The notes beneath the pieces are model-generated. The model was not told the DNA's origin, made no database searches, and worked only from the letters and a program-made list of their open reading frames with translations. Source: Balneolaceae bacterium (GTDB lineage: Bacteria > Bacteroidota > Rhodothermia > Balneolales > Balneolaceae). From it: a stretch of DNA of 33,058 bases. Positions within the stretch are counted from its first letter, which is position 1. Every line of letters begins with the position of its first letter. Made by a program: the position numbers and the translations under genes. This document shows, piece by piece, positions 2,012-4,441 of the stretch. Location of the stretch: positions 1 through 33,058 of the forward strand of contig RECI01000130.1 of NCBI GenBank assembly GCA_007694095.1, in the 5' to 3' direction.

Positions 2012-2671
2012 ATGGACAACGCTCAATTGACCAGAAAACAGAAGGAATTTTTTGATTATATCATCGACTATAAAAAAGAGTATGATGTATGGCCTACCTA
2101 CAGGGAAATAGCCGAGGCCTTCAATTACAAGTCTCCAAATAGTGTAACCCAAAATATACAGGCTTTATTAAAAAAGGGATACTTAATTAAAACGGATGAA
2201 GATGAATATGATATTCACCCAAACTACGAGGAAAATCTCGGGCTCAAAAAAAGTACAGGAATACCAGTTCGCGGGCTCATTGCTGCCGGGTACCTGCAGG
2301 AAGCCGTTGAAGCCGACCTTGGGCGTATTACACTCGAAACCCTTTTTCCTAACCTTGAAAACATGTTCGCCCTTCGTGTTTCGGGTATGAGTATGAGAAA
2401 TGCAGGTATTTATGACGGGGATTTTGTGTTGCTTATGGACAGTGATATCAGGGACGGTGATATTGGTGCTGTTCTTTATGACGGCGAAACCAGCCTTAAA
2501 CGGATCTATTACGATAAAAACGGTCTTCGCCTCGAGCCGGCCAATGAAGAGTACCAGGATATCATCATCGAGCCTGATGTGTTTGAAGAAGTGCGGATCA
2601 TCGGCAAATACATTGGCCATGTAAACCGTACCGGAATTTATAAATCAATCCCGAAAAAAATGGCCGGGTAA
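2012..2671 (+). CDS. lexA: LexA repressor (SOS response, self-cleaving serine protease)
   Basis: The protein has 219 residues, the usual LexA size. Residues 1-70 form the winged helix-turn-helix domain: LTRKQKEFFDYI, then PTYREIAEAF and the recognition-helix region SPNSVTQNIQALLKKGYL. The C-terminal S24 peptidase domain keeps the self-cleavage bond Ala92-Gly93 in GLIAAGYL, the catalytic Ser127 in SGMSMRNAGI and the Lys163 general base in TSLKRIYY. It should bind operators of DNA-damage genes and cleave itself when RecA filaments form. It is a single gene, divergent from the HEAT-cyclophilin gene, with no clear Shine-Dalgarno sequence. A LexA-like regulator with another target set is possible, but the layout and the intact dyad favour LexA. 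Confidence 0.9.
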   Translation: MDNAQLTRKQKEFFDYIIDYKKEYDVWPTYREIAEAFNYKSPNSVTQNIQALLKKGYLIKTDEDEYDIHPNYEENLGLKKSTGIPVRGLIAAGYLQEAVEADLGRITLETLFPNLENMFALRVSGMSMRNAGIYDGDFVLLMDSDIRDGDIGAVLYDGETSLKRIYYDKNGLRLEPANEEYQDIIIEPDVFEEVRIIGKYIGHVNRTGIYKSIPKKMAG

Positions 2672-2762
2672 AAAAACTGAAAACAAAATTTTGCCGTCTG
2701 CTTCAGCTGGCGGCTTGAAAAGCTCCGCAAATACCCTCCCTTGCTAAAGTGATCCAGGAACT

Positions 2763-3266
2763 GAGGCTGTCTCAAAAGCAAATATAAAATTGTGACAACT
2801 TAAAATTGTTATGTTTGCACAAATGTGGAAAAGGAGCTCCCCTCCTTGCGGTGTTTTTTACCTCGAAAGTCAGATTCCGGTTGCAAGATAGAAACATGCC
2901 GTACCTCCGGCACGGGGTCGCGCTTCAATTCTTGGTTTCTACAAACATATCGCACCTGACAGCGCGTTTTGGTTAATAAAATTACATCGACGCATTAAAA
3001 GGTTTGTGATTCAGGGATCGTTTGTACCAATGCAACTTCACTCGTCCCGTCAGGGATGCTATGTTTGTAGAAAAAGACCGGCCCGAACATGCCTTTGTCC
3101 CGGCAGGGACAATATGTTTCTGGTTAAAAGCATCGTACGGCGTATTTACGGACGTTCTTTTTGCGTCGGAGGCAGGAAGCAAGGAATAGTTGGAAATCGA
3201 TTCTATCATTTATCACCTAAATTTATTAAGCCTAAAAATAGCATTAACGACTTTTGAGACCGCCTC
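2763..3266. mobile_element. 504-bp element bounded by 16-bp terminal inverted repeats (MITE-like or IS remnant)
   Basis: The left end GAGGCTGTCTCAAAAG (2763-2778) and the reverse complement of the right end at 3251-3266 (GAGGCGGTCTCAAAAG) agree at 15 of 16 bases. Ends of this kind resemble the termini of several insertion-sequence families. No transposase frame is left inside, so this would be a non-autonomous element or an internal deletion derivative. No clear target-site duplication was found next to the ends. The interior carries four palindromic units described separately. This element accounts for most of the gene-free stretch 2672-3496. Confidence 0.55.
2884..3130. repeat. Four dispersed palindromic units with a shared ATGTTT(G/C)TAG-like tail
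   Basis: Each unit has a short GC hairpin followed by a tail close to ATGTTTGTAGAAA. Two point rightward: TCCCGTCAGGGA at 3045-3056 and GTCCCGGCAGGGAC at 3097-3110. Two point leftward: one at about 2892-2918, which on the minus strand reads CCGTGCCGGAGGTACGG, and one at about 2937-2968. Repeats of this style are scattered through intergenic DNA of many Bacteroidota-related genomes; that comparison is from memory. Here they sit symmetrically inside the TIR-bounded element. Short ORFs across this stretch are by-products of the repeats. Confidence 0.6.
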
Positions 3267-3311
3267 TCGGGAAGATTTCAGGAAAAATGGGAACCTATCC
3301 CGAGGTGTCAA

Positions 3312-3334
3312 GACTGTCGCTCCACTCCAGCATT
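3312..3334. repeat. Copy 1 of the GACTGTCGCT...CTCCAGC repeat
   Basis: The block reads GACTGTCGCT, then CCA, then CTCCAGCATT. Two further copies lie at 5037-5061 and 5082-5107. It directly precedes the heptamer array. Confidence 0.55.
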
Positions 3335-3335
3335 T

Positions 3336-3391
3336 CACTTTTCACTTTTCACTTTTCACTTTTCACTTTTCACTTTTCACTTTTCACTTTT
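3336..3391. repeat. Tandem heptamer array, 8 copies of CACTTTT
   Basis: Eight perfect head-to-tail copies of CACTTTT fill 56 bp, followed by a run of A. The array ends 105 bp upstream of the bicupin start. A perfect heptamer tract can change length by slippage. Any effect on the downstream promoter is inference. Confidence 0.9.
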
Positions 3392-3496
3392 AAAAAAATG
3401 ATATCTCACAGAGCTATTCCCAATTGAATATTTGCACCAAATCCTTTTCGTGATTTTATCAATGGTATTTTGTATTGTTATAAAAAAAAAGCAGCA

Positions 3497-4441
3497 ATGA
3501 AAATTCAATTTTATTTATTGACTTTACTGATGTTCCTGGCTTTTACATGGTTTCAGGATGCCAAGGCACAAAACAGCCGTTTCATGATTGCCAATCTTTA
3601 TGATGGCCCGTCAGATACACTGAACGAGATACTCGAATCTTTCAGGGTACGAAACCCCGGCTATGATTTTACCTATTATTCTTCCGTAACGGGTATCGGA
3701 AAAGAGAATGTTCATCGGATAGTGTTTCTTCAGGAGGGAGAAGGAAATGCAACCATAACCACTGAAGCGGGGGACAGAATAGAATCATCTCTAACATTTG
3801 GGGATATGGTGATACTGAGAAAAGGTGAACACATGCATACAGATCAGCCTCTCGGGTTTCTCGTTTTTACGGTTCCCGATATACCACCGGCAGAATTACC
3901 TTCCTATATCCGTCCCGATTGGGATCCAAATATCACGGATGTACCAGGCGGGTGTGCAACCGAGATTGATGCCTACCGCCGGATTCTTTTGACATGGAGA
4001 AAGGACGTGGGTGAATATATTTTCCACTCCCTGAATGCCCATCGGGTTCGAATCAGGGATTCCTTTAGTCATTATCATCCCGAAGATACCGGCTTTGACG
4101 AATTTTATCTTGTGCAAATGGCAGAAGAAGGTGCAAAAATCATCATCAGCGAAAATGTTGAACTCATCAGGGAACCAGAGAAAATCACTGCTTATCAGGC
4201 CACCGAATTAATACAGGAATATGAATTACGGAAAGGTGATTTGGTCTATATACCCAGGGGAGTCATGCACAGAGGGGTTGGCGGGGTTCTTGCGCAGGTG
4301 ATAACGGTTCCCGGGTTCATTCCGGGAAGTGAAATTGGCGTTGACCATCTGATCAGGGAAATCAACGAAATTCTTGCACTCGACAATGAAAATGCCCTGC
4401 CCTATAACATAGAATTTTCATCTGAACCTGTGATAAGGTAA
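3497..4441 (+). CDS. Secreted bicupin protein
   Basis: I chose the ATG at 3497 because it gives a clean signal peptide: MKIQFYLLTLLMFLAF, then a cleavage site after the Ala-Lys-Ala preceding Gln25 (315 codons including stop, 314 residues). The frame extends to a TTG at 3470, but that adds a lysine-rich tail ahead of the signal. Two cupin barrels follow. The first (about residues 55-130) has GDMVILRKGEHMH but lacks a complete metal set. The second (about 180-275) has His192 and His194 in SHYHP, Glu202 and His258 in GDLVYIPRGVMH, a plausible three-His-one-Glu metal site. The substrate cannot be told; cupins include dioxygenases, isomerases and sugar-binding proteins. It stands alone between repeat-rich spacers. 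Confidence 0.75.
   Translation: MKIQFYLLTLLMFLAFTWFQDAKAQNSRFMIANLYDGPSDTLNEILESFRVRNPGYDFTYYSSVTGIGKENVHRIVFLQEGEGNATITTEAGDRIESSLTFGDMVILRKGEHMHTDQPLGFLVFTVPDIPPAELPSYIRPDWDPNITDVPGGCATEIDAYRRILLTWRKDVGEYIFHSLNAHRVRIRDSFSHYHPEDTGFDEFYLVQMAEEGAKIIISENVELIREPEKITAYQATELIQEYELRKGDLVYIPRGVMHRGVGGVLAQVITVPGFIPGSEIGVDHLIREINEILALDNENALPYNIEFSSEPVIR

What the first reader, a model, noticed from the sequence alone, without database searches (positions are those of the whole stretch)
2763..3266. 504-bp TIR-bounded element carrying four palindromic repeat units
The 16-bp ends match at 15 positions, and the four inner units are arranged symmetrically, two leftward and two rightward. Either palindromic repeats inserted into a dead insertion sequence, or the whole block is a non-autonomous mobile unit that spreads the palindromes. 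The second option would explain how such repeats travel.
Basis: partly seen in the sequence, partly recalled or inferred. Interest (0 to 1): 0.5.

Follow-up and report, generated by a model that had tools for sequence, protein, structure and literature searches.

The report
Mobile mini-element carrying palindromic repeats
A 504-base stretch of a bacterial genome looks like a small jumping-DNA unit without its own enzyme that has carried a foreign block of palindromic repeats to several places in the genome, which suggests one way such repeats can spread.

Summary
In detail: 16-bp inverted ends (15/16) enclose four palindromic units, A-B-B'-A'. The end pair alone could be chance; recurrence is the proof. 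The same ends bound five complete elements in this genome (504 bp here, four of 268-272 bp) and five truncated copies. IS1182-family insertion sequences in other genomes have the same ends, one of them (same taxonomic family) with exactly the congeners' variant. None was found in this genome. So the block is an IS1182-type MITE, itself a known kind, not a dead IS. The four units are a separate module that in a related genus brackets an IS200/IS605-like transposase gene. MITE and module are joined the same way at three loci that share no flanking sequence, and the congeners that could be compared lack the insert at all three. In congeners, MITEs with these ends carry other palindromes, including CGTC-type head-to-head pairs, for which no transposase is known. 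How general this is remains open.

The parts
2763..2778 (+). left terminal inverted repeat GAGGCTGTCTCAAAAG
   Evidence: identical to both ends of the IS1182-family element L227:3944-5743
3251..3266 (-). right terminal inverted repeat (GAGGCGGTCTCAAAAG on the minus strand, one mismatch)
2763..2880 (+). left arm of the MITE, shared with the short copies
   Evidence: BLAST over element positions 1-149 to five copies at 81-85%; alignment
2889..2916 (+). palindromic unit A; its first half is recognisable in the short copies
2936..2965 (+). palindromic unit B
3044..3073 (-). palindromic unit B', inverted partner of B (25-nt arms, 84% complementary)
3096..3126 (-). palindromic unit A', partner of A by position; scored only as a distant B match (7 mismatches)
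2890..3157 (.). A-B-B'-A' module with spacer; short copies lack it apart from the first half of A
   Evidence: similar modules around a Y1 transposase gene in G046
3158..3266 (+). right arm of the MITE, shared with short copies
2012..2671 (+). left neighbour: LexA-like gene (context, not part of the element)
   Evidence: PF01726 and PF00717
3497..4441 (+). right neighbour: cupin/JmjC-like gene (context; the ATG at 3497 is my choice, the ORF list starts it at 3470 with TTG)
   Evidence: PF08007, weak

Best explanation
The block is a non-autonomous transposable element (MITE) of IS1182 type that has acquired a palindromic module and moved with it. Steps: (1) an IS1182-family transposase, supplied in trans by an element not found in this genome, recognised the 16-bp ends (inferred); (2) a resident MITE with a simple central hairpin took up an A-B-B'-A' module of a kind that elsewhere brackets an IS200/IS605-like Y1 transposase gene (the composite is shown, how it was taken up is not); (3) the composite was copied to at least two, probably three, loci (supported by the shared junction and by absence of the insert in congeners; that a transposase did it is inferred); (4) most copies then lost the centre of the module and some were truncated (inferred from the half unit A in short copies). 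No target duplication is seen. The family looks old and inactive here (inferred from the divergence of the copies and the missing enzyme).
For: Same ends and arms in 5 complete and 5 incomplete copies in the own genome. Alignments of copies stop at the element ends (7 of the 10 copies, plus strand). With elements masked, the flanks of the three composites share nothing with each other (all 10 copies, both strands). 178 matches to GAGGCNGTCYMAAAA against 5 for the backwards control, in 18 of 28 genomes of the genus including the own; 34 end pairs of 41-504 bp in the loci held. IS with the same ends: L227, 1800 bp, both ends exact, IS1182 transposase at 439.5 bits (cut-off 270); L240, 1826 bp, second end with 3 mismatches, 431.3 bits; in the own taxonomic family G071:C4, 1733 bp, both ends GAGGCTGTCCAAAAAG, the congener MITE end. 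Junction of module and right arm shared by C29, C15 and C101; C29 against C15 identity 88.5% in the module and 93.8% in the right arm, C29 against C101 90.6% and 87.5%. Insert absent in the comparable congeners: at lexA-cupin 2 of 2 (gaps about 52 and 178 bp against 772 and 889 bp over the same anchors), at C15 6 of 6, at C101 5 of 5 by gap length; in seven gap regions of G011 and G018 and in G008's longer C101 gap no element-like sequence was found apart from one 14-base match. Nearly base-level empty site for the short copy C177 in G011. The G018 MITE (201 bp) has the simple hairpin and no unit A by inspection.
Against: No IS1182 transposase was found in the own genome (draft of 324 contigs), so the mobilising enzyme is inferred from relatives. 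Similarity between MITE and IS inside the ends was not tested. No target duplication is seen, whereas a published IS1182-type MITE has direct repeats (MITEPye1). Of the three composite loci only the window copy has both ends: C15 and C101 are truncated on the left, and C101 looks like a recombinant of a long and a short copy. At the composite loci the extra length here exceeds the element (for instance about 1,040-1,240 bp extra at C101 in four congeners for an element of about 450 bp), so other lineage-specific sequence is there too and the junctions are not base-resolved. At C177 the left junction rests on about 12 alignable bases. Only 2 short copies (C3, C2) pass the unit-A scan; in the others the half unit is seen only in the alignment. 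Flanks do share short repeats, 32-83 bp, between other copies.
Confidence: 0.8

Rival explanations
1. The palindromic module inserts by itself, through a Y1 (IS200/IS605-like) transposase, into a hotspot in the MITE centre, so each composite is an independent insertion and the MITE is only a target.
For: Similar modules bracket a Y1 transposase gene in G046, and the half unit A in short copies could be a pre-existing target. Printed precedent: REP elements inserted within palindromes in A. variabilis, T. roseum and H. neapolitanus (PMC3733652, section 7).
Against: The three composites share arrangement, spacer and right junction, and differ from each other about as much in the module as in the arm. 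None of the five Y1 genes found in the own genome is in the module-bracketed clade. No run of units was seen within the stretches held around them (up to 1.5 kb, less at contig ends; two show one 3-mismatch hit at the gene end, a position also hit in other Y1 genes).
Confidence: 0.12
2. The element is a dead IS with palindromic repeats inserted later.
For: The ends match those of real IS1182 elements.
Against: No transposase remnant recognised; short copies are what is found across the genus.
Confidence: 0.04
3. The copies were spread by recombination or gene conversion between repeats rather than by transposition.
For: C101 looks recombinant and copies vary around internal direct repeats of the type GGCGTTTTTTGCGTCGG; short repeats of 32-83 bp recur in several flanks.
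Against: Similarity between copies stops at the ends; the composites share no flank; a short copy has a near base-level empty site in G011.
Confidence: 0.05

Closest known systems
MITEPye1 of Paracoccus yeei, an IS1182-type MITE (PMC11578231, passages seen); two MITEs with IS1182 partner ISMac2 in M. acetivorans (PMC3852290, table rows seen)
   Same: Short, no transposase gene, ends like those of IS1182 elements, thought to be moved by IS1182 enzymes; MITEPye1 is said to fold into long stem-loops
   Different: No direct repeats seen here; the passages seen do not mention a captured palindromic module; other phyla
MITECca01 of Cardinium, IS982-derived (PMC9769881, passages seen)
   Same: IS-derived, multi-copy, mostly intergenic, in a Bacteroidetes endosymbiont
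   Different: Other IS family; its parent IS is intact in the same genome; no foreign module mentioned in the passages seen
IS1182 insertion sequence family (NCBIfam NF033551)
   Same: Identical or near-identical 16-bp ends
   Different: No transposase gene; 504 or about 270 bp instead of about 1.7-1.8 kb
REPINs and REPs with RAYT transposases (PMC3116915, passages seen)
   Same: Inverted palindromic units, hairpin-forming pair, similar units next to a Y1 transposase gene in a relative
   Different: Four units per module; the associated enzyme passes NCBIfam's IS200/IS605 model and falls below the REP-transposase cut-off; no GTAG tag directly 5' of a stem by inspection
REP elements inside longer palindromes in A. 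variabilis, T. roseum, H. neapolitanus (PMC3733652, section 7 read)
   Same: A palindromic repeat nested in a longer repeat
   Different: There the host is described only as a palindrome; here it is a MITE with IS1182-type ends at several loci
TnpA-Y1 subclass 1.2 (PMC6006769, passages and table rows seen)
   Same: The Y1 enzymes near the modules show like motifs (DH[LI]H, Y..NQ..HH)
   Different: The row seen lists 'no' under REP-type structure for subclass 1.2, whereas palindromic modules bracket such a gene in G046; assignment by motif only

Membership tests
IS1182-type MITE | terminal inverted repeats matching an autonomous IS1182 element | tested here: met
   L227 both ends exact to GAGGCTGTCTCAAAAG; the G071 element has the congener variant at both ends
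IS1182-type MITE | no transposase coding capacity | tested here: met
   two ORFs inside had no Pfam match
IS1182-type MITE | several dispersed copies bounded by the ends | tested here: met
IS1182-type MITE | target site duplication | tested here: inconclusive
   none seen by inspection of 34 end pairs nor at the C177 empty site; published IS1182-type MITEs differ: direct repeats in MITEPye1, table values that I read as 4 and 0 for the two in M. acetivorans
IS1182-type MITE | parental transposase in the same genome | tested here: not met
   0 matches in G000 at E 1e-4 (PF13751) and 1e-10 (protein); draft assembly of 324 contigs
IS1182-type MITE | sequence shared with the parent inside the ends | not tested
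   no alignment of arms against an IS was run
REPIN / GTAG-type REP with RAYT | associated enzyme is a REP-associated tyrosine transposase | tested here: not met
   G046 and G016 enzymes: NF047646 31.6 and 32.3 bits against a cut-off of 80; NF033573 IS200/IS605 56.3 and 68.8 against 55
REPIN / GTAG-type REP with RAYT | GTAG tag directly 5' of the stem | tested here: not met
   inspection only: unit B has CTAC about 10 nt outside its stem
CGTC-tagged REP | [CT]GTC tag followed by a stem starting AT, mostly head-to-head dimers | tested here: not met
   0 units in the window element by the rule; met by 11 of 32 genus elements of 60-400 bp under the slightly wider rule
IS200/IS605-associated palindromic module | like units bracket a Y1 transposase gene | tested here: met
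   in G046:C10 all 14 A/B matches in 16 kb lie within 2.2 kb around the Y1 gene, 0 in 5 shuffles; weaker in G016; not seen around the five Y1 genes of the own genome

The most novel reading that the evidence does not exclude
IS1182-type MITEs act as general vehicles for palindromic repeats in Bacteroidota and relatives: lineages have loaded different palindromes (the Y1-associated module here; CCCGA...TCGGG pairs in one congener; CGTC/TGTC-tagged head-to-head REP dimers in five others) between the same ends, so that repeats without a transposase of their own are spread by the IS1182 enzyme. This would answer, at least for these bacteria, the printed open question of how CGTC-type REPs move.
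Probability: 0.35. Interest if true: 0.7.

Novelty: new variant of a known kind. Interest (0 to 1): 0.5.

Why it matters
Each part is known: MITEs, also of IS1182 type, palindromic repeats and Y1 transposases. What did not turn up in the searches made (open-licence papers only, most seen as listings) is a MITE of identified IS type that carries such a palindromic module to several loci. It makes a mechanism for spreading transposase-less palindromic repeats testable: ends, a candidate parent type and cargo are defined here.

Tried and rejected
Parent IS by profile: none of the 13 PF13751 loci (6 of 28 genomes of the genus) shows these ends; five of the 13 were also searched for long inverted repeats, and three of these have ends of another kind around TTGCACAAC. 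Exact end in viral contigs: 13 stretches, one 99-bp pair, no full IS. Plasmids (504 bases): no match; phages (first 149 bases only): one chance-level match. Rfam on 2600-3500: one hit at E 0.23, far below its cut-off. Fixed-length target duplication: none visible. Base-level empty sites at C29, C15 and C101: flanks too diverged. Single window units fold weakly, the whole inner stretch better than shuffles (z -3.0, 1 of 200 as good); the free palindrome on C3 folds strongly (z -6.6).

Limit of the search for autonomous copies in the genus: the loci reach 1.5 kb beyond an end, so an IS of 1.7-1.8 kb could be missed there; in the coordinates listed (list cut) and 25 I saw no pair of IS size that is not explained by short pairs. 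Two more long pairs in named genomes (L167, L191) enclose other genes by inspection.

More look alike by eye but are not counted. This is weak support for the general reading outside the genus.

Full report
What is in the sequence. Between a LexA-like gene (2012-2671) and a cupin-like gene (3497-4441) lies a block whose ends are inverted copies, 2763-2778 and 3251-3266, matching at 15 of 16 positions. Inside are four palindromic units, A and B forward, B' and A' reverse. The end pair by itself could be chance: 12 shuffles of the window gave 0-2 comparable pairs each. The two ORFs inside that were tested match no Pfam family.

It is a repeated element. A search of the own genome with the 504 bases gave 15 matches. 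With the end pattern they resolve into five complete elements (window 504 bp; C281 269, C177 272, C3 268, C2 270 bp) and five incomplete ones (C15, C101, C20, a second on C3, and C317 at a contig edge). Alignments between seven of these copies stop at the element ends; identity is about 81-95%, so the family is not recent. With elements masked, the flanks of the ten copies share only short stretches of 32-83 bp, and none between the three composites C29, C15 and C101. Only C281 and C2 share sequence directly beside the element: they sit at the same point of a repeated flank in opposite orientation.

It belongs to a genus-wide MITE family. The pattern GAGGCNGTCYMAAAA occurs in 18 of 28 genomes of the genus, the own included, 178 times against 5 for the backwards control. 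In the loci held, 34 distinct end pairs were found, 41 to 504 bp long (these loci reach only 1.5 kb beyond an end). No fixed target duplication is visible.

The parent type is IS1182. Among those 80 loci, 42 end pairs were found; four are longer than 400 bp and two of these enclose IS1182-type transposases: L227 (Chitinophagaceae MAG, 1800 bp, both ends exact) and L240 (Algoriphagus, 1826 bp, second end with 3 mismatches). Both proteins pass NCBIfam's IS1182 model. In the window's own taxonomic family the L227 transposase matched in 8 of 92 genomes at E 1e-10; the element in G071 (1733 bp) has GAGGCTGTCCAAAAAG at both ends, the end of the congeners' MITEs, and G068 has one such end. The own genome has no match. 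Other IS1182-like elements in the genus lack these ends.

The inner module is something else. In G046, another genus of the same family, units in the same A-B-B'-A' order form about four modules around a Y1 transposase gene; all 14 unit matches in 16 kb lie in that 2.2-kb stretch, and 5 shuffles give none. A-B spacing is nearly the same as in the window (45 and 43 bases between starts), B-B' spacing is not (about 263 and 137). In G016 weaker matches lie on both sides of another Y1 gene. These two enzymes form a supported clade (99/98) in a tree of 29 of the 49 listed Y1 matches; of the 30 fetched loci one gave no usable frame. None of the five Y1 genes found in the own genome is in that clade, and no run of units was seen around them in the stretches held. 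The enzymes pass NCBIfam's IS200/IS605 model and fail its REP-transposase model, and their motifs resemble subclass 1.2 of PMC6006769 (passages seen). So I call the module Y1-associated, not a REP in the strict sense. In the own genome the B pattern at up to 3 mismatches occurs 7 times: five in the composites C29, C15 and C101, and two in one free palindrome cluster on C3. More diverged free units could have been missed.

The module travelled with the MITE. C29, C15 and C101 share the join between module and right arm. Module and arm have diverged to similar degrees (C29 against C15 88.5% and 93.8%; C29 against C101 90.6% and 87.5%). Short copies that retain this part show half of unit A next to GTTTTTTGCGTCGG in the alignment; only two of them, on C3 and C2, pass the unit-A scan at 5 mismatches. 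The G018 MITE has the simple hairpin without it. The simplest order is uptake of the module in this lineage, spread, then loss of the centre in most copies. C101 looks like a recombinant of a long and a short copy.

Loci without the insert. LexA-like genes were found in 24 congeners (25 of 28 genomes with the own); in the stretches compared only G011 and G018 keep the cupin neighbour, and both lack the element (gaps about 52 and 178 bp against 772 and 889 bp over the same anchors). Flanks of C15 were found together in 6 of 7 searched congeners: gaps of about 249 (G011), 321 (G018), 81 (G017), 94 (G008), 88 (G012) and 183 bp (G004, partial anchor) against 929-1094 bp here. For C101, 5 of 7: about 120 (G011), 377 (G018), 331 (G013), 116 (G004) and 853 bp (G008) against about 1327-1415 bp here. 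G008's gap holds neither ends nor element-like sequence, and seven gap regions of G011 and G018 hold none beyond one 14-base match. The extra length here exceeds the elements, so the junctions are not base-resolved. The short copy C177 has a nearly base-level empty site in G011, with about 12 alignable bases on its left and no target duplication.

A wider pattern. Other MITEs with these ends also hold palindromes. In G020, two loci carry a form of 261-262 bp, which is the form of about 200 bp plus a pair of CCCGA...TCGGG palindromes in its central hairpin. In G005, G007, G009, G013 and G016, head-to-head pairs with [CT]GTC tags are enclosed: 11 of 32 elements of 60-400 bp, none in 50 rounds of shuffles. 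In 400 kb of G005, 19 such units were found (2 in shuffles); all four dimers lie beside an IS1182-type end, three of them between two ends (at most 4 mismatches), and of 11 single units one does; of 1000 random positions 2 had both ends and 20 had one (not a random sample). Outside the genus, strict support is thin: 1 of 45 end pairs. Di Nocera et al. state that CGTC repeats apparently lack a dedicated transposase and leave their mobilisation open (PMC3733652: abstract, sections 6, 7 and 16 read, other passages seen).

Literature. Searches: REPIN/RAYT/MITE, IS1182 with MITE, REP with miniature inverted-repeat and Bacteroidetes, mixed terms and the end sequences themselves (one unrelated human paper). 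IS1182-type MITEs are in print: MITEPye1 in Paracoccus yeei, with direct repeats (PMC11578231), and two with partner ISMac2 in M. acetivorans (PMC3852290). Of the other four papers, passages of two were seen (PMC6367388, PMC9208149) and do not bear on this; two were seen only as listings. In what I saw, no MITE of known IS type with a captured palindromic module is described.

Verdict. It is a new variant of a known kind (an IS1182-type MITE with a captured palindromic module), of moderate interest by itself and of higher interest if the carriage of transposase-less palindromes proves general.

Noticed in passing
G005, G007, G009, G013, G016 loci, e.g. L116:1501-1639, L124:1501-1639, L092:150-290, L093:1501-1712, L097:1377-1515: IS1182-type MITEs enclosing CGTC/TGTC-tagged head-to-head palindrome pairs (11 of 32 elements of 60-400 bp); CGTC repeats are said in print to lack a dedicated transposase.
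   Followed up: partly
L125:1501-1761 and L127:1501-1762 (G020): A MITE form of 261-262 bp at two loci equals the form of about 200 bp plus two CCCGA...TCGGG palindromes in its central hairpin.
   Followed up: partly
G000:C281:3287-3555 and G000:C2:4635-4904: Two short copies sit at the same point of a repeated non-coding flank (64 and 54 bp alike on the two sides) in opposite orientations.
   Followed up: partly
window 3333-3391; L377:4228 (G000:C3); L044:2224 (G000:C207): The same heptamer (TTTCACT or its complement, in rotation) is repeated eight times at three places in the stretches of this genome scanned, one 67 bp from the element and one about 190 bp from the free palindrome cluster; the C3 fragment copy also has such repeats nearby.
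   Followed up: partly
L052 (G021:C83) and L055 (G020:C28): The flanks outside the MITE look orthologous in two congeners by inspection, so some insertions seem old and vertically inherited.
   Followed up: no
L163, L165, L167, L186, L190, L207 (named genomes): Very short end pairs (36-47 bp), three of the six followed by T runs, look like intrinsic terminators built from the same sequence, also in Bacillus-type genomes.
   Followed up: no
L372:7038-9188 (G046:C10): About four A-B-B'-A' modules around an IS200/IS605-like Y1 gene of a type for which a published table row lists no REP-type structure.
   Followed up: partly
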